Positions 282 to 22,193 of a DNA stretch of 22,193 bases are shown here, in pieces. The first letter of the stretch is position 1. Every line of letters begins with the position of its first letter. The DNA lies in the IMG/VR virus record IMGVR_UViG_3300021057_000037, positions 1-22,193 of that record; one strand, given 5' to 3'. The position numbers were made by a program, and so were the translations under genes. The stretch is from a virus. Under the pieces are notes generated by a model. That model ran no database searches and was not told the DNA's origin. It saw nothing but the letters and a program-made list of their open reading frames with translations.

Positions 282-1067
282 TCAGATCGGATAATTGGCC
301 GTTAGGACCTCCACCTTTCGCTTCAGATAGCCACTTTTCGCGTTTACGCTTACACCGCTCTCGAGGCTCCACATGTGCCAGCCGAATTGCTTTGCATACT
401 TCATCAGGATGGGCGAAGGGTAGCTGCTCAAAAGAAACTTACCGCTGACTTCTGAAAGAGCCTTTAAAAGCCGTTCGAAATCCTCTATAGTGTAGCCGTC
501 GTAATGGCCGCAGTCAGAGTTGAAGTACGGCGGGTCGCAATAAAAGAAGCTATCGGCCGAGTCCCGCGTTTTAATGACGTATAAGGCGTCGGCGCACTCC
601 AATTGAGCGTTCTGTAAGCGGATGGCCAGATCCTCGGTGAACTGCTGGCGTTTGTTGCTGACCTTGAGCGTCGTCGTCCGCTTGCTGCGATCATAACCCC
701 ACGGTCCGTTCAGCTTTGCACTAAATGATTGAGAACTCAGGACCCAAACGGCCCAGGCTCTTTGCACATCGGTAAACAAGTGCGGGTTGTCGTTAATGAT
801 GCGAGCGTCCTTATGAGCGCTTCTGCTGTGAAGTGTTATTCGCACGAGTGCCTGGAGGTCGAGGAAACGCTCCTTGCATACCCGGTAAAAGTTCATCAGT
901 TCTTTGTTGGTGTCGTTCAATACCTCAACATCACTGATTGGCTTTCCAAAAAATATTGCGGCCCCTCCAAGGAAGGGCTCGCAGTAAAGTTTGTGCTTTG
1001 GAATTTTTGTGAGAATAGTGGTGAGCAACTTCTGCTTGCCACCATAGTATGTGATCGGTGTTTTCAT
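282..1067 (-). CDS. dam: DNA adenine methyltransferase (Dam/D12 class)
   Basis: A 261-residue D12-class N6-adenine methyltransferase that transfers a methyl group from S-adenosylmethionine to adenine in DNA. The family hallmarks are visible. The N-terminal AdoMet-binding signature ITYYGGK lies at about residues 5-11. The CEPFLGGAA motif lies at about 29-37. The catalytic DPPY is at about 178-181 in the context FFYCDPPYF. The length fits phage Dam proteins. I start at the ATG at 1067; the open frame can be extended two codons to a TTG at 1073, which is less likely. It is the last gene of the leftward late operon, 70 nt after a tail-fibre gene. This suggests late self-methylation of phage DNA, as a defence against host restriction or to mark packaged DNA. 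Target specificity (GATC or other) cannot be read from the sequence. Confidence 0.93.
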   Translation of the reverse strand: MKTPITYYGGKQKLLTTILTKIPKHKLYCEPFLGGAAIFFGKPISDVEVLNDTNKELMNFYRVCKERFLDLQALVRITLHSRSAHKDARIINDNPHLFTDVQRAWAVWVLSSQSFSAKLNGPWGYDRSKRTTTLKVSNKRQQFTEDLAIRLQNAQLECADALYVIKTRDSADSFFYCDPPYFNSDCGHYDGYTIEDFERLLKALSEVSGKFLLSSYPSPILMKYAKQFGWHMWSLESGVSVNAKSGYLKRKVEVLTANYPI

Positions 1068-1073
1068 TTTCAA

Positions 1074-2422: not shown

Positions 2423-3274
2423 TTATTGTGCGACGTAAGTGATCATGGTCGTAAAGGCGATGGCCGGATCTTTTTCAATGGCTCCGCTGACGGGAATGAA
2501 AACCCTTGTGACATTGGCATATGCGCCGCCATCAGGCTTGCTTTGAACCGTTCCCATCGTAACCTCGTAAATATTTGAACTGCTGTTCTCGATGTAGTCA
2601 CCGTGCTTGTTGATGCTGTACTCGCCATTGAATGGAAGACTTGCCAGGTAGGCGGAGAATGCCGGCTCTACGATTGCCTTGATGTCTGCCAGAGGAATTT
2701 GACCGTTGTAGTAAACCGTCATCGGTGCATTTAGTTTGTCAGAAGCGAGTGATATCGCATCAAGGATGTTTGCGCCGGACCATTGAATTTGGCGCAGATA
2801 CGTATTGAACGCACTCAATTCGCCAGAAGTCAGGGCGACAGGTGTGGTCCCGCTCAGTTTGGCGACTTTTACTGTCGTTATGCCGCCGGAGCTCACAACT
2901 GCGCAACGTTTGATGATCTGCTTCACAGCATCGATCACCGCATAGTAGTATTTTCCGGTTACCTCGTCCCAACTGAGCGCATCGCCGTATTGGAATTTCA
3001 TCAATTCCTTCTGAAACCACCGGTCCGTTCCAGCAATGCCACTATCAACCTTCGCGGCAATCTCCGCCTGCCGGGTCTCCCAGAGATCATCCGCGATGAC
3101 TGTCATTGCAGCGAATAACCACATCCACAGGTTGAATTCCGAAGTCTTGCTCGTGCTCGTTAGCCCGTCAAGGTTTGCATCGTTGTTCACTTCATTGTAG
3201 ATCAACGCATAGTATTCGTCGATGCGACTCTTGAACGTCTGAAATTCGGTTAGTATGTCGTTGGCTGTAATCAT
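2423..3274 (-). CDS. Baseplate wedge protein, gpJ-like (Mu gp47 analogue)
   Basis: A 283-residue protein, shorter than enteric gpJ but typical for Bacteroidota Mu-like phages, whose homologues are often mislabelled nucleotidyltransferases. The N-terminal segment (FNLWMWLFAAMTVIADDLW, about residues 47-65) resembles the helical entry of J proteins. The middle carries a beta strand like TTVKVAK and a long helix ending IQWSGANILDAISL. The C-terminus is beta-rich, ending in an IAFTTMITYVAQ-like strand. Its start overlaps the esterase stop by 4 nt. Together with the gp25/gp46-like and gpI-like proteins it should form the baseplate wedge. Unusually, two fibre or spike genes separate it from the gp25-like gene. 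Confidence 0.65.
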   Translation of the reverse strand: MITANDILTEFQTFKSRIDEYYALIYNEVNNDANLDGLTSTSKTSEFNLWMWLFAAMTVIADDLWETRQAEIAAKVDSGIAGTDRWFQKELMKFQYGDALSWDEVTGKYYYAVIDAVKQIIKRCAVVSSGGITTVKVAKLSGTTPVALTSGELSAFNTYLRQIQWSGANILDAISLASDKLNAPMTVYYNGQIPLADIKAIVEPAFSAYLASLPFNGEYSINKHGDYIENSSSNIYEVTMGTVQSKPDGGAYANVTRVFIPVSGAIEKDPAIAFTTMITYVAQ

Positions 3275-5115
3275 TGTTCATTGATGTATGGGAACCAATA
3301 GTTAAAACTGTCTAGGCCATATTGATTTACTCCAGCAGCATCCCAGTGTACATTGTTATCCGCTGGGCCAAGTAAACCATACGCGTCAGTGTTGAAATAA
3401 GTGATGCCTTTGATCTTTTGATTGTACACCGGGTCGGCAGCGATCGTCGTGACAGTGTTCTGCTGGGCGGTCCGGACAGTGTTCATTTCACCAGGTACAG
3501 TGAAGTTGTTGTGAATCCGGCCCCACTGCATACGCAACTTCCTGGTATCGTATCCGAGATTTTCGAGAAAGTCAATTTTACCTTTCACATAGCTGTTCCC
3601 GTTCGCCTCATACGCATTGGCCTGATTGACATCCCCTCGGTCGGTTTCCCCTTGCATCCAGCCCCAACCCCTGAGTTCAAAATTCGTGATCCCAGCAAGA
3701 GCTGCTTGAATCACCGCGTTCGATTCGGCGAACAATTCTCCGGAGGAAGATGTGTTCCAATCGTAATTCCCTGCTCCTGCAACTTGTGCAAGAGCAGTTC
3801 CGACCCATGCGCGTCGAATAAAATGGATTGATGATGGTTTTCGTCGCGCAAGTTTATACCCAAGTCGCATTTCGCGGCCCATGTCGCCCGCGTGGCTGTT
3901 ATTTTGAAAGCCGGGCTCCAGATCACGCCAGGTAATCGTCGGACTTAGATTGGCGGGCGAGCCAGTGTCGTTATTGGTGTAACCAATTTTCACTCCCACC
4001 TTCGAATACAGGTGTGTTCCGATCGTTCCAGACGTTGCGTTCCCTTTCTCGTTCGACTGCCCCTCCATGATGTAAACCTGCTTTCTCGTTTGCTCACCCC
4101 ACATTTTCCTATACAGATATTTCACAATCTTCTCCTCCTCGGTGGCTGTCAATGTGTTGTTGAAGTAAAGGATTTGGTATTCTCTATGGTTACTGTAAGC
4201 AAGGTTTGCGCTTCCATCACGGCCATGATAGTGGATTGTCGAGGTGGAATCTCCGAGCCAATCTCCATTGTTAGCTCCGCTGGCAACTTGCAGCGTAACT
4301 TCTCTTGTGTGAAGCTTTGCCGTCGTTGTCGTGCCATTCGACCGCACAATTATTAAGTGAGGTTCGTCGACACTGCTTATGAAGTTATCGTTCGACGTCG
4401 GCGAGTTCAGTTGATCAACAGAGTCGTTGTTGCGTTGAAATATTCCAATGCCGTCGTTCACACTCGCTATGCCTGCTCGGATATAGAAGTATCGAGTGTT
4501 GTCGTTCCCTTGCCCCACCAGGAAATTTGTCGTTCCGTTACAAGCCGCGATAATTATGAACTGACCCGTTTGATGTGTAAATACCTGGTTGGCAGTGTCC
4601 GCCGCGTCCCGAAGACGGAATGCACGAGTTGAGCCGACGCTGTACGTCACGTGTTTGTTTGTGGCGTCGTATTGCGGATGTCCTCCAGCCACGACCTGCT
4701 TTCGAAGGTAGTTTCCAGTCTGATCCGTCTGGTTGAGCAAGTCAGTGCCGGACAGGTTCATCCTTGACGTGTCCGTGTTATCGAACCAATAGACAAGTTT
4801 CGAGTTGTTAACCGGTGAATCATAAACTTCGATTTGCAATGACGCCGTGATATCGGACGGGTTAGAACATCTTCCGCCCGTGGTATCAATTAGACCGGTG
4901 ACGTTATAAACACCGGCGACATTACCGTTGTATGTTCCGACCTGCCAGGTAACTTGCAGCGAACGATAACTACTGTCTTCCAACTGTACGCGCACGCGCG
5001 ATGGCAACGAGTCCAATGAAGGAAACGATGTGCCGAGGATCGCGTCTATCGCCAATCCGGATTCGACCGAAGTTATCGCGGGTCCGCCAAATCGATGTGA
5101 GGTTACAAAGAACAT
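3271..5115 (-). CDS. Tail spike with SGNH/SASA-type carbohydrate esterase
   Basis: A 614-residue three-part protein. Residues about 33-75 match a bacterial Ig-like Big_4 pattern (LPSRVRVQLED, then VTWQVGTYNG, then AGVYNVTG). Residues about 105-335 are beta-rich and look like a concanavalin/LamG-type lectin fold. Residues about 345-614 are an SGNH hydrolase of the sialate-O-acetylesterase type. The nucleophile block is IMEGQSNEKGN with Ser354, a block WMQGETD lies at 486-492, and the C-terminal catalytic region is DNNVHWDAAG with His590. The family removes O-acetyl groups from sugars. On a virion this would act on capsule or surface glycan during adsorption. It sits next to a fibre gene and upstream of gpJ, which supports a structural spike role. 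There is no signal peptide. Confidence 0.8.
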   Translation of the reverse strand: MFFVTSHRFGGPAITSVESGLAIDAILGTSFPSLDSLPSRVRVQLEDSSYRSLQVTWQVGTYNGNVAGVYNVTGLIDTTGGRCSNPSDITASLQIEVYDSPVNNSKLVYWFDNTDTSRMNLSGTDLLNQTDQTGNYLRKQVVAGGHPQYDATNKHVTYSVGSTRAFRLRDAADTANQVFTHQTGQFIIIAACNGTTNFLVGQGNDNTRYFYIRAGIASVNDGIGIFQRNNDSVDQLNSPTSNDNFISSVDEPHLIIVRSNGTTTTAKLHTREVTLQVASGANNGDWLGDSTSTIHYHGRDGSANLAYSNHREYQILYFNNTLTATEEEKIVKYLYRKMWGEQTRKQVYIMEGQSNEKGNATSGTIGTHLYSKVGVKIGYTNNDTGSPANLSPTITWRDLEPGFQNNSHAGDMGREMRLGYKLARRKPSSIHFIRRAWVGTALAQVAGAGNYDWNTSSSGELFAESNAVIQAALAGITNFELRGWGWMQGETDRGDVNQANAYEANGNSYVKGKIDFLENLGYDTRKLRMQWGRIHNNFTVPGEMNTVRTAQQNTVTTIAADPVYNQKIKGITYFNTDAYGLLGPADNNVHWDAAGVNQYGLDSFNYWFPYINEQ

Positions 5116-5118
5116 ATT

Positions 5119-5943
5119 TTAATGCCCGATAAATGCCACTTTAAGTCCTTTCGCAGTGCCGTTACCAATCTGATCAATGACGATCTCTACCTTGACATCA
5201 TCACCAAGGTTTGGGTTCGAAATTACCGGAGGGGTGACGGCGGTCGTGCTCTTATTTTCTGTATTGTCGATTGTGATTTTGGTAGACAGAATCGACACAC
5301 CTTCAACCTTTATGTCGACGGTAAATATGCTTCCGGCACTTTGAGCTGTTACGAGAGTCGACCGGACGTCCAATAGCGTCATGGCAAAAGTCGTCCAGAA
5401 CGTTATTTTGGTGCCAGTCGTTAGAGCTGTTACTTCATCGCTACATGGAACAATGAAGCTCTTAAGCTTTTGATTTTTGAGCTTGAGCGGAGTAACAGAA
5501 AGCTTGGCCCCGGTTTCCCCAACGGAAGTCCCGGCTGAAGTTTGGGCATCCGTAGCTTCTTCAACAATTCCCGCGACAGTCTCGGACGCATTGTTCACTT
5601 GCGATGTGATCAGAACATATGCAGACCCGCTCCATCGGTACGAGAGGTTTGTGTCCTCAGCAATGTAAATGATGCCGGTGGCGCCAGCGCCTGGAAAGGC
5701 CGCAAGATTCGCATAGGTCAAGACGTCATCGACGTATGAGGGCAGCTGAGCAGAAGGTACCTTCCCGGACCCATCCAACCCCGCAACTCCATTTGCCGCA
5801 CCGATCTTGTCGTTGTTGATCTTGCTATCAATGACATTTTGCACCATGTCGGCAACGCGCACTTTCGTGTTTGCCTTTTTAACCGTCTCATTTCTGATGA
5901 CGTTTGCCTGGGTGGTTAATTGTGAATCCGTTTGCTGCGGCAT
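5119..5943 (-). CDS. Proximal tail fibre protein
   Basis: A 274-residue fibre-like protein. The N-terminus (about 1-55) is helical and polar, probably the attachment region. At about 50-70 it has GVAGLDGSGKVPSAQLPSYV, a motif very common in phage tail fibres. This is followed by IIYIAEDTNLSYRWSGSAYVLI, the short repeat type found in many fibre shafts. The C-terminal 110 residues are beta-rich and could be a trimeric tip. The stop lies 3 nt before the esterase start, so the two are probably made together; this fibre may carry or anchor the esterase spike. The host receptor cannot be inferred. Confidence 0.72.
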   Translation of the reverse strand: MPQQTDSQLTTQANVIRNETVKKANTKVRVADMVQNVIDSKINNDKIGAANGVAGLDGSGKVPSAQLPSYVDDVLTYANLAAFPGAGATGIIYIAEDTNLSYRWSGSAYVLITSQVNNASETVAGIVEEATDAQTSAGTSVGETGAKLSVTPLKLKNQKLKSFIVPCSDEVTALTTGTKITFWTTFAMTLLDVRSTLVTAQSAGSIFTVDIKVEGVSILSTKITIDNTENKSTTAVTPPVISNPNLGDDVKVEIVIDQIGNGTAKGLKVAFIGH

Positions 5944-7050: not shown

Positions 7051-8060
7051 ACCGTTAGCTTGATACCCAATTCAATTGTCCTCCTGGTTCCAAATGCCCC
7101 GAATTGCGTCTTTACGCTGTCGATCACGTATGTGCCGCTGCGTCTTTCTCCATACTCCGGGTCCTCAAGTTCGGTGTGCATTAATGGTTCGGCATACGGA
7201 TAAAGGAAAGTGTCTATGGTTCCCTCGTATCCGGTATACTTCAAGCGCTTCAACTCCTCTTGCGCCAGCTTCTTGAGCTGGGTTTTGTCCGAAATGTTGT
7301 AGAAATAGAGAGTGCGCTGTTCGCCGTCCTTGTCACCAACATCATCCACAACAACCTTTGTGTTGTTCTGTAAAATTCCGATTGCCTTAACGTTTAGCAG
7401 GACGTCGTCCTCGTCTCGGTATGTGAGCTCGTTTGAAATCACATTCCATGCGAGCGAGTGTTTGACTGTGCCAAACTCCAGCTGATAGGCGAGTCCGGTA
7501 AAGAGTTCGCGACCCTTGAAGTAGCTCACGAGGCCAAATTCTTCCCTGATCTTTTCGAGCGCCGTTGCTGCGGTATTCCCGGCCTGGATGACGAAGCCCT
7601 CACTGAAGGTTACGTCCGGCAATTGACTACTGAGAGTTACCCGGGCGGCAGAGTGATTCTTATTGACCTCACCGATGAGGTACGTTACGACATCCTTCAG
7701 CGTTACTTTAGCGGCGGCTGACCATGCCTTCTTTACCGGTGTCTTTCGGAAAAAATAGATGTGGTCTTCGCATTCAATTTCAAAAGGGAACGTGGGTTTG
7801 ATGCGGCGCACATATCCGTTAAATTCTTCATGCCCTTCCATGCCCACATACCAAAGTTTGACACTTACTGGATCGCCGACGCTGATAAAGTTTTCGAGCG
7901 TGTTTGTATCGAGTGATTCGGTACGAACATTCTTTGGCAAACGGATTTCACATTTATCAGCAAGCTCTCGCCAGCTCTTCTCGATGCGAACTTCGTTCAC
8001 CTGGGTGAACCGGTAGTTGCCTATCAGGATCTCACATGCTAGTACAAACGCCATAATCAT
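7047..8060 (-). CDS. Baseplate hub protein, gpD / Mu gp44-like
   Basis: A 337-residue protein with the domain style of the gp27/gpD/Mu gp44 hub family. The N-terminal domain has strands such as VRIEKSWRELADKCEIRLPK and an ISVGDPVSVKLWY-like entry, where family members define the origin of the coordinate-like beta barrel. A middle domain has a helix TAATALEKIREEFGL followed by YFKGRELFTGLAY. The C-terminal domain ends in GTYVIDSVKTQFGAFGTRRTIELG. Hub trimers form the platform for the tube and carry the spike. It lies directly upstream of the gpV-like gene, and its start overlaps the preceding stop by 4 nt. A second ATG two codons downstream (8054) is an equally possible start. Confidence 0.75.
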   Translation of the reverse strand: MIMAFVLACEILIGNYRFTQVNEVRIEKSWRELADKCEIRLPKNVRTESLDTNTLENFISVGDPVSVKLWYVGMEGHEEFNGYVRRIKPTFPFEIECEDHIYFFRKTPVKKAWSAAAKVTLKDVVTYLIGEVNKNHSAARVTLSSQLPDVTFSEGFVIQAGNTAATALEKIREEFGLVSYFKGRELFTGLAYQLEFGTVKHSLAWNVISNELTYRDEDDVLLNVKAIGILQNNTKVVVDDVGDKDGEQRTLYFYNISDKTQLKKLAQEELKRLKYTGYEGTIDTFLYPYAEPLMHTELEDPEYGERRSGTYVIDSVKTQFGAFGTRRTIELGIKLTV

Positions 8061-17637: not shown

Positions 17638-17654
17638 TTTTGCCAAAGGCAAAA
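17638..17654 (+). promoter_or_regulatory. Perfect 7-bp palindrome upstream of terminase small subunit
   Basis: TTTTGCC-AAA-GGCAAAA (17638-17654) is a perfect inverted repeat with a 3-nt centre. It ends 9 nt before the chosen ATG at 17664. It could be an operator or an mRNA hairpin hiding the ribosome entry site. It also contains the TTG at 17640 that would be the alternative start, which argues against that start. Confidence 0.6.
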
Positions 17655-17663
17655 CGCTATTAC

Positions 17664-18131
17664 ATGGCAATTGACAAGAAGAGTGCAGCGCAAGAGTTAT
17701 TCAATGCAGGATGGGAACAAACTAAAATCGCTTCGATCCTGGAGCTGAGCGAGAAAACCATCTCTGAATGGAAGAAGAAATTCCGGTGGGAAGAAAAGCG
17801 AGCAAAGAAAAACATGGCGCAGGACGTTGCCGAAGATCACGTGTGGGAGTTGATCAACTACCAGTTGCAGGCGCTGAAGGCCAAGAAGGACAAGTTCGAA
17901 GAGCAGCTGAGAAACAAAGAGATTGAATCTCTCCCGGCTTTAGACAAAGGCGACATCGACGCCCTTCAAAAACTTTGGACCACCGTCAAGAATAAGCAGC
18001 TCGACTGGTCGGTAATCGTCAACAACGTCAAAGACTTCATCGGCTACATATCAGAGCGCGACTTAAAGCTCGCGCAGGACCTGCTCAATCACACCGACGA
18101 TTACCTCAACTTCAAACGCAAGAATCTGTAA
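17664..18131 (+). CDS. terS: Terminase small subunit (HTH DNA-binding)
   Basis: A 155-residue protein. The N-terminal helix-turn-helix (about 7-40: KSAAQELFNAGWEQTKIASILEL, then SEKTISEWKKKF) is the DNA-binding domain usual for small terminases, recognising phage DNA to start packaging. The rest is helical and charged, fitting the oligomerisation domain. The stop is immediately followed by the terminase large ATG (no gap). I use the ATG at 17664; a TTG at 17640 would add 8 residues but lies inside a palindrome. It is the first gene of the rightward operon. Confidence 0.82.
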   Translation: MAIDKKSAAQELFNAGWEQTKIASILELSEKTISEWKKKFRWEEKRAKKNMAQDVAEDHVWELINYQLQALKAKKDKFEEQLRNKEIESLPALDKGDIDALQKLWTTVKNKQLDWSVIVNNVKDFIGYISERDLKLAQDLLNHTDDYLNFKRKNL

Positions 18132-19754
18132 ATGCTGATCAAAGTATCACCGAACGAAAAAGCGTACAAGGAGTGGTTGGATCTGTGCACAAGGATCCGG
18201 ACGGCCACGGGTGCGACATCTGTCGAAGTGACGGAGACGGCGGCTGAGCGCGAGCAACGCATAGCAGAACTGAAAAAGCCACAAAATTTCGAGGCATTTT
18301 GTAAGTATTACTTTCCGCATTACATCGATGCGGACTTTGCCTGGTTTCATAGAAAAGCGGCGAAAGAGCTGCTAACGACTGACGACCTTATTGCGGCCCT
18401 TGAATGGCCGCGAGAGAGCGCTAAATCTGTTTTCGTCAACGTCTTCATTCCAATGCATCTCAAGGCAACCGGATGGCTTAGTGGTTTGATTCTAGCGAGT
18501 GAGAACGAGCAGAAAGCTGCGGTCCTGCTTGGAGACATTCAGGCGGAACTCATGGAGAACCGCAGGTTTGCCGCGGACTTTGGGGAGCAGCGGACGATTG
18601 GAAATTGGAGTGAAGGATCGTTCGTTACAACGGATGGCATAGGTTTCTGGTCATTTGGTCTCGGACAAAACCCGGCTGGCGTTCGTCGTGCGTCAAAGCG
18701 TCCGAACCTCGGGATCGTCGATGATGCGTCAAACAAACGGCGCTCAAAAAACCAGCAGCGCATCAAAGAGGACCTAGATTGGGTATTGGGCGATTTTGCT
18801 GGCTGTCTTTCCATCAAAGGCAAGAAGTTGATAATGGCAAACAACCGCACTTGCCGCAATGATCTCCTTGCTCATTTCGTTGGCGATGTAAATGATGGAG
18901 ATCCTAAACGAAAGGGCTTGATTCACATCAAGGTCTTTGCAACAGAAGACCCCAAAACACACAAGATGCTTCTCCCGGAGCACGGCGGCGTCCCGGCGTG
19001 GAATAGATATACTATCCAGCAGCTTACCAAACGCTTCGCAGAGGTCGGATACAGAAACGCGATGCGAAATTATTTTCACATCGACATTCAGGATGGTGAG
19101 ATGTTTCTCGAAGAGCATCTTCCGTTTGTCGACCCTCTGCCTTTGGACAGGTACGATGCGCTAATAACATACAATGACCCTTCTTACAAGGGCGCAAAAA
19201 CCAACGACACAAAGGCCATCGTTCTGGTCGGCAAACATGGTTCTTATTATGATGTCCTTTGGGCCTGGGTCCGTCATGCTTCACGCACTGCAATGATAAA
19301 GGCGCATTATATGATTGATGATATCGTCAAAGGTCGCGTCCGTCACGTCGCATTGCACCGTGGTAAAATGGAGAACAACTGCGCACATTACATGGAGGCG
19401 AACTTCATCCAAGAGGATTTGTTCATCGGAGAATATCGAATTGAAGGCGAGCGCCGCGGCGAACAACTCAGGATTCGTTCCGACAAACGCAAGAAGCCAG
19501 ACAAGCTCGGCCGAATCGAAGACATTCACCCGATTGCTGAGAGTGGATGTCTCCGTTTCAACAAGCGCTTACAGAAGGATCCCGATATGATCACCCTCCG
19601 GGACCAGTTCCTAGCTTTTCCAAATGGTCATGATGACGGACCAGACGCAGTCGAAGGCGCCATCTATTTACTCAACAAACGCAACAAAACACATGGAGGG
19701 CGAAAAACCTACCGCACCGGCAAATTCCGGAGAACGTCCACTCGGGTTGGATAA
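18132..19754 (+). CDS. terL: Terminase large subunit (ATPase-nuclease)
   Basis: A 540-residue packaging motor protein. The ATPase domain (about 50-330) has an unusual Walker A, WPRESAKS at 92-99. The lysine and serine are kept but the usual Gly-rich lead is replaced. Walker B is LGIVDD at 193-198. The nuclease domain (about 340-520) shows an acidic residue in ITYNDPSYKG (Asp349) and the C-terminal motif HDDGPDAVEGA (Asp501, Asp502, Asp505), as in RNase H-like terminase nucleases. It cuts and translocates DNA into proheads, docking on the portal encoded downstream. The 62-nt 3' overlap with the next small gene is only present if that gene uses its upstream ATG. Confidence 0.92.
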   Translation: MLIKVSPNEKAYKEWLDLCTRIRTATGATSVEVTETAAEREQRIAELKKPQNFEAFCKYYFPHYIDADFAWFHRKAAKELLTTDDLIAALEWPRESAKSVFVNVFIPMHLKATGWLSGLILASENEQKAAVLLGDIQAELMENRRFAADFGEQRTIGNWSEGSFVTTDGIGFWSFGLGQNPAGVRRASKRPNLGIVDDASNKRRSKNQQRIKEDLDWVLGDFAGCLSIKGKKLIMANNRTCRNDLLAHFVGDVNDGDPKRKGLIHIKVFATEDPKTHKMLLPEHGGVPAWNRYTIQQLTKRFAEVGYRNAMRNYFHIDIQDGEMFLEEHLPFVDPLPLDRYDALITYNDPSYKGAKTNDTKAIVLVGKHGSYYDVLWAWVRHASRTAMIKAHYMIDDIVKGRVRHVALHRGKMENNCAHYMEANFIQEDLFIGEYRIEGERRGEQLRIRSDKRKKPDKLGRIEDIHPIAESGCLRFNKRLQKDPDMITLRDQFLAFPNGHDDGPDAVEGAIYLLNKRNKTHGGRKTYRTGKFRRTSTRVG

Positions 19755-19905
19755 GTCAGCTTATGACATGATCCAATTCACGCTGCTACTCCGCTCAGAC
19801 GAAGAGCAACGTGATATTTCAATGTTTCGGAATACTCCGAAGCCGTGCGCGAGATGTGGCGAAACACATGTCGACCTGTTTCAATTCTATCACCACTTTA
19901 ACTAA
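19693..19905 (+). CDS. Small CxxC protein of unknown function
   Basis: A 70-residue protein (45 residues if the ATG at 19768, 13 nt after the terminase stop, is used). The C-terminal part carries CARCGETH, a CxxC with a nearby His, which could bind zinc. I do not recognise a family. Its TAA shares an A with the ATG of the next gene (TAATG), the close coupling expected of a translated gene, and this is the main reason I keep it. Start choice is open: 19693 overlaps terminase by 62 nt, whereas 19768 avoids the overlap. Confidence 0.5.
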   Translation: MEGEKPTAPANSGERPLGLDKSAYDMIQFTLLLRSDEEQRDISMFRNTPKPCARCGETHVDLFQFYHHFN

Positions 19906-20384
19906 TGAGCAACTTCATTTCAAAGGAAGACTACAAGTACCAGATCCGGACAACAAGGCTCGACCAAATCCTAGAGGCCGCAGACGAAGATGAAGATTTG
20001 ATACTAAACTCAGCGGAGACCGAGGCAGTCGGCATGATTGAGAAGCACCTTGCAACGCGTTACGATATGGGTATTGAACTCGGCAAGACTGGGAATGCCA
20101 GAAATAAAGTGCTCTTGAGGTGGGCAAAGGTACTGGTCATTTACTACATCTACGAGCGTATTCCCGATGAGTTCGTCCCGGAGCGCGTCGTGAAAAACTA
20201 TGATGAGGTCATGAGCCAGCTTGAAAAGATCGAGGATGGCGACGCCTCGATTCCTGGACTTACTCCGATCTCCGTTGCGGATCCCAACGACGAGGGTGAA
20301 ACAAAACCATACACCAGACGGAGATGGGGTAGTCAGTTAAAACGCGCCAATGACGGTGCTTCACCTAACTATTTGGAAAAATGA
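19905..20384 (+). CDS. DUF1320-like head-tail connector (Mu gp36-like)
   Basis: A 159-residue protein. The N-terminal segment (about 2-70) is helical with FISKEDYKYQIRTTRLDQIL, and a central helix NKVLLRWAKVLVIYYIYERIP matches the DUF1320 layout of Mu gp36-like proteins. These sit at the head-tail interface. The C-terminal 50 residues are polar and look disordered. The start overlaps the CxxC gene's stop by 1 nt, and its own stop overlaps the portal ATG by 4 nt (ATGA). In Mu this gene lies nearer the tail genes; here it sits between terminase and portal. Confidence 0.72.
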   Translation: MSNFISKEDYKYQIRTTRLDQILEAADEDEDLILNSAETEAVGMIEKHLATRYDMGIELGKTGNARNKVLLRWAKVLVIYYIYERIPDEFVPERVVKNYDEVMSQLEKIEDGDASIPGLTPISVADPNDEGETKPYTRRRWGSQLKRANDGASPNYLEK

Positions 20385-21634
20385 AATTTGCTTTGTCAAT
20401 ACCGGACAACTGGAAACCGAAGTTCCTGCGGGCCGACATGAACGCTGTAAATACTTTTCAGCAGGACCTCAAGGCTAAGGGTAAAAAGCGCATCAGCGTT
20501 AACCTGTCGCGGCAAAGAACCTTTGTTGCCAGCATGCGGATGGATGAGCTGAAGACCGCCATAATGATAGCAGAAGACAAGCTCAGGCCGCGCAGAGAGT
20601 TGTTGTATGAGTACTACCATCAGGCGTTAAAGGACGGTCACATCATCGGCGAGTATGAAAAAGCAATTAACAAAGTTGTTGGCTCGCCTTTCGCAGTTTT
20701 TAAAACTGGTACCGACGACATCGACGAGGTGGCAACGGCACTGTTGCAGACGCAGTGGTTTGAAGACTACCGTACCTATTTCGAAGAGGCGAGATTTTGG
20801 GGACACAGCTTAGTTCAATTCCTCGACTTGGTACCGTCAACAAAGAAGGGTGTCTCACTTGAATTCAACGAAATCGACCTGATCGAGCGTGAGCATGTTC
20901 GTCCGGAGGATGGCCTGATCGTGATGCATCCAAGTCATGAGACCGGAATCCCCTTTCGCGACGACAAGTTCAGAAAGCCGCTTCGGCTGATCGAATTCGG
21001 TAAGAAAGACAACCTTGGAATCCTCATGGTTGCCGCGACCGAGCGCATTTGGAAAAATGCAGTCAGGACGGACTGGGCAAGACATAGTGAGAAGTTTGCT
21101 ATGCCGATGTTGGCCGTAAAGGCAGCCACAAGCGATCCAAAGGAACTCGACGTGCTTCAGAAGATGTGTGAGGAGTTTGGGAACAACTTGTGGATGATCC
21201 TTGACCCGGAGGATGAAGTTGACTTGAAAGAGCCGACGTTCAAAGACTCTTACCAGATCTACAAGGAGAAGGCCCTGTTCTGCAACGACGAGATCTCGAA
21301 GGCCTTCACCTGGCAAACCGGCACAAGTGACGAGAAAGCGTTTGTCGGAAGCTCAGAGGTACATGAGCGTGTTTTGGACGCTTATGTTGAGGCACGTAAG
21401 CGCAAGCAAACCTACCACATTAACGACATCTTGTTCCCATTCCTGATCGAACACGGATATCCTTTGGCTGAACGTCAGTTCCGGTATATCGTGATGGACG
21501 AGTCAGATCCGGATCAGGAGGAGGCCGAAGACCAGGACAAGAAAGATCCTAAGGGCTCCGGAGGTGGCCGCGCAAAAAAATCCGCGCCCCGCAGAGGCGG
21601 GGCCAGGCGATCACCGACCGACTTATTGAAATAA
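20381..21634 (+). CDS. Portal protein (DUF935 / Mu gp29-like)
   Basis: A 417-residue portal protein. Residues about 45-380 follow the DUF935 pattern: a helical ELKTAIMIAEDKLRPRRELLYEYY, a central ARFWGHSLVQFLDL, and KNAVRTDWARHSEKFAMPMLAVK. The wing/stem helix region is followed by EISKAFTWQTGTSDEKAFVGSSEVHERVLDAY, the typical FVGSxEVH-like C-terminal block. Dodecameric portals form the DNA entry vertex and dock the terminase. The last residues are an acidic/Lys-rich linker (DPDQEEAEDQDKKDPKGSGG) and a basic tail. In this tail the codons for Lys399-Lys400 form the slippery run of the next entry. A ribosome that does not slip stops at 21634. Confidence 0.9.
   Translation: MKFALSIPDNWKPKFLRADMNAVNTFQQDLKAKGKKRISVNLSRQRTFVASMRMDELKTAIMIAEDKLRPRRELLYEYYHQALKDGHIIGEYEKAINKVVGSPFAVFKTGTDDIDEVATALLQTQWFEDYRTYFEEARFWGHSLVQFLDLVPSTKKGVSLEFNEIDLIEREHVRPEDGLIVMHPSHETGIPFRDDKFRKPLRLIEFGKKDNLGILMVAATERIWKNAVRTDWARHSEKFAMPMLAVKAATSDPKELDVLQKMCEEFGNNLWMILDPEDEVDLKEPTFKDSYQIYKEKALFCNDEISKAFTWQTGTSDEKAFVGSSEVHERVLDAYVEARKRKQTYHINDILFPFLIEHGYPLAERQFRYIVMDESDPDQEEAEDQDKKDPKGSGGGRAKKSAPRRGGARRSPTDLLK
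21560..21603 (+). promoter_or_regulatory. Candidate programmed -1 frameshift signal (portal into Mu-F-like)
   Basis: The heptamer A AAA AAA (21574-21580) lies in the portal frame as GCA AAA AAA. After a 5-nt spacer TCCGC comes a 7-bp all-GC hairpin, GCCCCGC (21586-21592), loop AGAG, GCGGGGC (21597-21603). A Shine-Dalgarno-like GGAGGT (21560-21565) lies 8 nt upstream of the heptamer, similar to the stimulator in E. coli dnaX. A -1 shift lands exactly in the Mu-F-like open frame. Confidence 0.72.
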
Positions 21635-22193
21635 ATCTTGAGGTCCTCGGGCTCTATGCCTGGAAGGGTCCATTGGTGGATGCGGCCGGCGAGATACCTG
21701 ACCTTGATAGCCTCGTTGAGCGAACGATCAAAAAGGTATATGACCGGAAGATCCAGGCGGGCGATATCGACGCAGATCTCTGGAAGGCTCAGACCGAGCA
21801 GTACTGGAAAGCAATTCGTGAGGGTTGGGGTGCCGCACCGTCGTTCTTTGATAAAGCTCAGCTTGCCATACTGGAGCTCCGGCGTAATGTGAATGTATTC
21901 TCTGCTTTTAAGAACCATGCAAACATCCTGGAGCTCACCGAATCTCTGACGAAACCGGATGGCTCACGGCTTCCTTTCAGCGAGTTCAAAAAGCTGGCGA
22001 AACCGATCAGCGAAAAGTATTACGATGCGTGGCTGAAGGCAGAGTACAACTATGCGGTTCGTGCGAGCTCGTCCGCCGCGCAATGGCAAAAGTTCATTGA
22101 CAACAAGAGCCTTCTGGAATACAAGACCATTGGCGACGGTCGGGTCCGGGATGAGCATCGCAAGCTGCATGGAACGATTTTGCCCGCAGACCA
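21580..22193 (+). CDS. Mu-F-like minor head protein, -1 frame, partial at window edge
   Basis: This is an open frame of 204 codons running off the right edge, in the -1 frame relative to the portal gene and entered at the slip site. It matches the Mu F-like head morphogenesis family, with an NVNVFSAFKNHANILEL segment, then FKKLAKPISEKYYDAWLKAEY. It also carries the family signature YKTIGDGRVRDEHRKLHGTILP near the edge. There is no ATG in the entire visible frame, and none between the preceding in-frame stop (21550-21552) and the slip site. The expected product is a portal-MuF fusion, join(20381..21580, 21580..>22193). An alternative is a TTG at 21673 preceded by GGAAGG, or an assembly error in the A run. 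Confidence 0.82.
   Translation, partial: MRAPQRRGQAITDRLIEINLEVLGLYAWKGPLVDAAGEIPDLDSLVERTIKKVYDRKIQAGDIDADLWKAQTEQYWKAIREGWGAAPSFFDKAQLAILELRRNVNVFSAFKNHANILELTESLTKPDGSRLPFSEFKKLAKPISEKYYDAWLKAEYNYAVRASSSAAQWQKFIDNKSLLEYKTIGDGRVRDEHRKLHGTILPAD

What the first reader, a model, noticed from the sequence alone, without database searches (positions are those of the whole stretch)
20381..22193. Portal and Mu-F-like minor head protein probably joined by programmed -1 frameshifting
Three independent features coincide. A slippery A AAA AAA in the portal frame is followed at 5 nt by a 7-bp all-GC hairpin, and preceded by an SD-like GGAGGT. A -1 slip enters exactly the frame of a Mu-F-like protein. 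That frame has no ATG across more than 200 codons and begins without a start signal near the site. The prediction is that every minor head protein is made as a portal fusion at a fixed ratio. This would put a set, sub-stoichiometric number of MuF domains on the portal ring. Frameshifting is well known for tail chaperones and some capsid proteins; I do not recall it for portal/MuF. A single-base error in the A run would also explain the data.
Basis: partly seen in the sequence, partly recalled or inferred. Interest (0 to 1): 0.88.

Follow-up and report, generated by a model that had tools for sequence, protein, structure and literature searches.

The report
Frameshift joins portal to MuF cargo
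Mu-like phages of Bacteroidota bacteria appear to make two versions of their DNA-portal protein, one plain and one carrying a MuF domain that often ends in a toxin-like enzyme, by letting some ribosomes slip one base at a conserved slippery site, which would fix how many cargo-bearing portals each virus particle gets.

Summary
In the window, A AAA AAA (21574-21580) sits in the portal frame, 5 nt before a 7-bp G/C hairpin. A -1 slip enters a MuF frame (PF04233) of 213 codons without ATG. A sequencing error is unlikely: the closest relatives (about 60% identity, three contigs) have the same -1 relation, with A AAA AAG and the same upstream GGAGGTGG.

Comparative evidence is strong. Of 120 non-redundant relatives with an overlapping -1 MuF frame, 119 carry an in-frame A6/T6 heptamer (5.2 expected; maximum 11 in 500 shuffles). 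Most are T TTT TTC followed by a GCCCC..GGGGC hairpin whose inner pairs covary. All 29 portal genes read from a search of 393 Bacteroidales genomes, made without reference to the heptamer, carry a slippery heptamer there.

Many relatives (P. gingivalis phages among them) invert the layout: portal and MuF form one ORF, and the same cassette would end translation after the portal. The polarity changed at least six times, so what is conserved is making both portal alone and portal-MuF. MuF tails often carry toxin-like domains.

No paper describing this was found in the searchable library. No fusion protein has been seen directly; ratios are unknown.

The parts
20381..21634 (+). Portal protein gene (Mu gp29-like, PF06074), 0 frame; ends 17 codons after the heptamer
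   Evidence: ORF; PF06074 E 4.1e-49; phrog_113 portal
21560..21565 (+). SD-like GGAGGT, 8 nt before the heptamer; conserved with the same spacing in L013-L015 only
   Evidence: sequence
21574..21580 (+). Slippery heptamer A AAA AAA in the portal frame (X XXY YYZ)
   Evidence: sequence; in-frame heptamer found by script
21586..21603 (+). Hairpin GCCCCGC-AGAG-GCGGGGC, 5 nt after the heptamer; candidate 3' stimulator
   Evidence: sequence; -19.0 kcal/mol for the 60 nt after the heptamer
21553..22193 (+). MuF (PF04233) reading frame, -1 relative to the portal, no ATG; incomplete at the contig end. Expected to be entered at 21580 by the slip
21580..21634 (+). Overlap of the two frames between slip site and 0-frame stop
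   Evidence: sequence
19905..20384 (+). Upstream gp36-like adaptor gene (PF07030), same strand, overlapping the portal start
18132..19754 (+). Terminase large subunit by gene order (no Pfam match at the threshold)
   Evidence: ORF; position as in annotated relatives
17640..18131 (+). Terminase small-subunit-like gene (PF06056)

Best explanation
The portal/MuF junction is a programmed -1 ribosomal frameshift site. Most ribosomes read the portal to its own stop at 21632 and make plain portal. A fraction slip back one base on A AAA AAA (helped, probably, by the hairpin and perhaps the SD-like element) and make a portal-MuF fusion (400 portal residues plus at least 204 MuF residues here). Because the slip ratio is built into the mRNA, it would set how many of the 12 portal subunits carry a MuF domain with its C-terminal cargo, and little or no free MuF would be made. 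Shown: the sequence architecture, its conservation, the covarying hairpin in the T TTT TTC clade, and repeated swaps between -1 and in-frame layouts with the slip site retained. Inferred: that slippage happens, its frequency, the stimulators in the window itself, and the dosage role.
For: Architecture in the window. Same -1 relation and A AAA AAG in three contigs at about 60% portal identity. Heptamer in 119 of 120 non-redundant -1 overlaps against 5.2 expected, maximum 11 in 500 codon shuffles. The T6 junction Phe-Phe is T|TTT|TTY in 110 of 110 against 32 of 491 other Phe-Phe pairs in the same loci (the 110 are defined by carrying the heptamer, so this describes the class rather than testing it). 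Hairpin covariation: the best of 496 column pairs on 85 sequences not filtered for pairing is a stem pair; 43 double-change cells against 12.7 shuffled, slid versions 30-57% paired against 100%. Sample taken without the heptamer: 29 of 29 loci retrieved by portal HMM alone, 32 of 32 with the three handle genomes. In-frame fused ORFs retain a heptamer at the linker in 33 of 35 against 5.0 expected, with the -1 frame ending 1-30 codons later; six I/II polarity changes at the fewest on the portal tree. No Rfam family matches.
Against: No fusion or truncated protein has been seen; no virion proteomics was found. The hairpin of the closest relatives is weak (L014: -4.9 kcal/mol over 40 nt), so the window's hairpin is not shown to be conserved in its own clade. 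The window hairpin alone is only moderately unusual. Some relatives use an ordinary separate MuF start (L005, L006, L037 group), so frameshifting is not essential to the family. Hankyphages have an ATG overlapping the portal stop, so MuF could also be made alone there.
Confidence: 0.92

Rival explanations
1. Transcriptional slippage: RNA polymerase adds or drops an A or T in the run, so some mRNAs encode the fusion in frame.
For: Peternella-type phages have A10 runs at the junction, and the L011 clade has A10, with A9 in one relative. Such runs are long enough for polymerase slippage.
Against: The window and its closest relatives have only A7, and the main clade has T6 followed by C. Those lengths suit tandem tRNA slippage better. 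Heptamers are in the X XXY YYZ phase, and a covarying hairpin lies 5-6 nt downstream, which polymerase slippage does not need.
Confidence: 0.06
2. Separate MuF gene started by reinitiation or a non-ATG start near the portal stop; the heptamer is incidental.
For: Some relatives have an ATG overlapping the portal stop (L037 group, Hankyphages). The window has a TTG at 21673.
Against: The heptamer is conserved and the start is not: 58 of 110 T6 type I loci have no ATG/GTG/TTG in the 20 codons after the heptamer and only 15 have ATG. The in-frame fusions keep the heptamer although no MuF start is needed.
Confidence: 0.03
3. Sequencing or assembly error in the A run; the true gene is an in-frame portal-MuF fusion.
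For: In-frame fusions exist in relatives, and a single-base change in the run would convert one layout to the other (L346/L347).
Against: L013, L014 and L015 from separate contigs have the same -1 relation, and the -1 layout is present in over two hundred loci including cultured isolates.
Confidence: 0.02

Closest known systems
Phage tail-assembly chaperone frameshift (lambda G/GT; SPP1 17.5/17.5* at UUUUUUC, PMC6316719)
   Same: Programmed -1 slip at X XXY YYZ in a late structural gene gives a short protein and a C-terminally extended one; SPP1 uses the same heptamer T TTT TTC
   Different: Different genes (portal and MuF instead of tail chaperones), a GC hairpin downstream, and the extension is a capsid cargo domain
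dnaX tau/gamma frameshift of E. coli (own knowledge)
   Same: SD-like element, A AAA AAG and stem-loop resemble the window clade; in the in-frame layout the -1 slip shortens the product, as for gamma
   Different: Phage structural gene; both polarities occur among relatives
MuF polymorphic toxins (PMC5576092) and Bacteroides Bxa (PMC11699363)
   Same: MuF domain next to the portal with variable C-terminal toxin-like domains; MuF homologues across Bacteroidales with glutamine deamidase tails are described there, and a Hankyphage MuF here has such a tail
   Different: Those papers treat MuF as a separate ORF; the word frameshift occurs in neither. Whether the Bxa prophage itself has the cassette was not tested
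In-frame portal-MuF fusions of Microbacterium phages (PMC7302621)
   Same: Portal and MuF in one polypeptide
   Different: Described as gene fusions; in the passages read no slip site is reported for them
SPP1 gp6-gp7
   Different: Separate genes, separate proteins that bind each other

Membership tests
Programmed -1 ribosomal frameshift site | X XXY YYZ heptamer in the 0 frame inside the overlap of two frames | tested here: met
   A AAA AAA at 21574-21580
Programmed -1 ribosomal frameshift site | Downstream RNA structure at about 5-9 nt | tested here: met
   7-bp hairpin at 5 nt in the window; covarying stem in the T6 clade; weak in L014
Programmed -1 ribosomal frameshift site | Conservation of the signal and of the frame relation in relatives | tested here: met
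   119 of 120; 29 of 29 in a sample taken by portal HMM
Programmed -1 ribosomal frameshift site | Both products made in cells | not testable with these tools
   needs a reporter or mass spectrometry
MuF superfamily (PF04233) | Profile match and position next to the portal | tested here: met
   E 9.3e-08, 33.2 bits against a cut-off of 29.6, although the domain is cut off by the contig end
Mu-type portal (PF06074) | Profile match | tested here: met
   E 4.1e-49
MuF polymorphic toxin | C-terminal toxin domain | not testable with these tools
   The window's MuF is cut off at the contig end; its close relative L014 has CdiA_C, E 4.7e-08
MuF polymorphic toxin | Adjacent immunity gene | not testable with these tools
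   would lie beyond the contig end
Transcriptional slippage site | Homopolymer of about 9 or more A/T | tested here: not met
   A7 in the window; A9-A10 in the Peternella and L011 clades

The most novel reading that the evidence does not exclude
A conserved two-product switch in Bacteroidota Mu-like phages: one mRNA makes plain portal and portal-MuF cargo fusion, with the slip site kept while the polarity flips repeatedly (0 frame = portal and -1 = fusion, or 0 frame = fusion and -1 = portal). Frameshifting thereby sets the number of cargo-bearing (often toxin-like) subunits tethered in each 12-mer portal ring.
Probability: 0.75. Interest if true: 0.88.

Novelty: new variant of a known kind. 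Interest (0 to 1): 0.82.

Why it matters
It shows how a ring of otherwise identical subunits could be given a set minority of cargo-carrying members, in a phage group that includes the gut Hankyphages and P. gingivalis phages. It predicts that MuF toxins of Bacteroidales are made as portal fusions, which the gene calls and toxin papers read here do not show, and it offers a direct test of whether MuF copy number is controlled by recoding. The repeated polarity flips are a natural experiment separating the need for a fusion from the need for two products.

Tried and rejected
Single-sequence scans for close relatives found none. Alignment A1 was too diverse for the genome scan. Codon-position entropy in the -1 frame was not decisive because the hairpin constrains the same bases. 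The SD-like element as a general stimulator was rejected: it is not seen in the T6 clade. An intrinsic terminator was considered and rejected by eye, since the T run precedes the hairpin. A first heptamer set without A AAT TTY seemed to show three exceptions among the unbiased loci; those three and one newly oriented locus carry A AAT TTY. L030 and L230 were first misclassified because their frames are broken elsewhere. Structure prediction was not run: it would not bear on frameshifting. A search for virion proteomics of Peternella found nothing.

Full report
OBSERVATION. The window is a whole viral contig of 22193 nt. The portal gene (20381-21634; PF06074, E 4.1e-49) contains GCA AAA AAA TCC, so A AAA AAA at 21574-21580 is in X XXY YYZ phase. 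GGAGGT lies 8 nt upstream and GCCCCGC-AGAG-GCGGGGC begins 5 nt downstream. The -1 frame is open from 21553 to the end of the contig, has no ATG in 213 codons and matches PF04233 (E 9.3e-08). Both pieces match phrog_35074, a single-chain profile, in the right order.

CLOSEST RELATIVES. Alignment-based search of viral contigs gave three contigs with about 60% portal identity (L013-L015). They keep GGAGGTGGC, have A AAA AAG at the same place, the same -1 relation, and no ATG start near the junction. This makes a base error in the window unlikely. Their downstream hairpin is weak (L014), so the hairpin's role in this small clade is not settled.

WIDER CONSERVATION, TYPE I. In Hankyphages, human-gut contigs and Bacteroidales prophages the portal ends with T TTT TTC followed, usually after 5-6 nt, by a GCCCC..GGGGC hairpin, and MuF is in the -1 frame. 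The 0-frame stop comes one codon after the heptamer in 71 of 110 non-redundant loci and 11-13 codons after in most others. Of 120 portals (clustered at 90%) with an overlapping -1 MuF frame, 119 have an A6/T6 heptamer in phase inside the overlap; codon shuffles of the portal tail give 5.2 on average and at most 11. The Phe-Phe at the slip is written T|TTT|TTY in 110 of 110 against 32 of 491 other Phe-Phe pairs in the same loci; the 110 were chosen by carrying the heptamer, so this is descriptive. On 85 distinct ungapped sequences not filtered for pairing, the highest covariation among 496 column pairs is a stem pair. On 52 sequences all eight pairs hold throughout, with 43 double-change cells against 12.7 in shuffles; those 52 were chosen for pairing at at least six of eight positions, so the percentage paired is biased upward, the covariation less so.

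SAMPLE TAKEN WITHOUT THE HEPTAMER. A search of 393 Bacteroidales genomes with PF06074 alone found portals in 54. The loci of the best 29 new matches, and three from handle genomes, were read: 25 type I, six type II and one cut by a contig end, and all 32 have an in-frame slippery heptamer at the junction. Four of these use A AAT TTY (L370, L373, L375, L376). An RNA model of the T6 cassette found five hits in the same genomes; four lie at the end of portal genes found and the fifth (L384) was not examined.

TYPE II, INVERTED POLARITY. P. gingivalis phages (L256, L265) and many relatives have portal and MuF in one ORF. The same T TTT TTC plus hairpin lies at the linker, and a -1 slip there ends translation 1-30 codons later, giving a portal without MuF. 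Of 35 non-redundant fused ORFs, 33 carry a heptamer in the linker against 5.0 expected; of the two without, L336 is truncated and L286 was not followed up. On the portal tree the fewest changes between types I and II are six (many forks are weakly supported). In the L011 clade one A more or less in an A9/A10 run separates type II from type I between near-identical contigs (L346, L347), which could also be an assembly difference.

WHERE IT IS ABSENT. Flavobacterium phages L005/L006 and the L037 group have a separate MuF start. Outside this group, D108, Mushu and RS1 have MuF in the +1 relation and D3112 has a -1 overlap without a heptamer; all four are annotated with separate MuF-position genes.

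MECHANISM. Most likely tandem tRNA slippage on the heptamer, stimulated by the hairpin. For A10 phages (Peternella group) polymerase slippage is an equal candidate. The conserved outcome is two products from one message. [quoted passage not shown] this is inference. Of 106 MuF parts scanned, 19 match PBECR2, 13 CdiA_C, 11 LPD3, 8 Gln_amidase and 4 PBECR3, so the cargo is often toxin-like, as described for MuF polymorphic toxins (PMC5576092, PMC5512222) and for Bxa of Bacteroides (PMC11699363). Making it mainly as a portal fusion would tether it in the capsid and limit its amount.

KNOWN OR NEW. Phage -1 frameshifting is well known for tail chaperones; SPP1 uses UUUUUUC there (PMC6316719). In-frame portal-MuF fusions are known (PMC7302621). 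Searches of the held library for portal/MuF frameshifting found no report; most subscription journals are not in it. GenBank records call MuF as a separate gene at varying starts or as part of one 'portal'. Hence: a new variant of a known kind.

LIMITS. No protein evidence; ratios unknown; the window's host is inferred to be Bacteroidota from its relatives; the window's MuF tail is not in the contig.

Noticed in passing
L164 around 7168-7255, L165 around 7207-7267: Portal reads CTT TTT TCG at the T6 run and MuF lies in the +1 frame. This would need a +1 or -2 shift at the same place.
   Followed up: partly
L167-L174 at the portal end, L009 around 5150-5190: Peternella-type phages have an A10 run exactly where the -1 MuF frame opens; transcriptional slippage is plausible there.
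   Followed up: partly
L346/L347 at 7309: Near-identical contigs with A10 and A9 at the junction, in-frame fusion in one and -1 in the other.
   Followed up: partly
L370, L373, L375, L376 portal ends: A AAT TTY replaces the T6 heptamer at the same distance from the stop.
   Followed up: no
MuF C-termini of 106 loci: Variable toxin-like tails: PBECR2, CdiA_C, LPD3, Gln_amidase, PBECR3.
   Followed up: partly
window 282-1073, - strand: ORF that looks like a DNA adenine methylase at the left end of the contig (by eye, not searched).
   Followed up: no
window 3271-5115, - strand: Tail-region ORF with an SGNH-esterase-like stretch (by eye, not searched).
   Followed up: no
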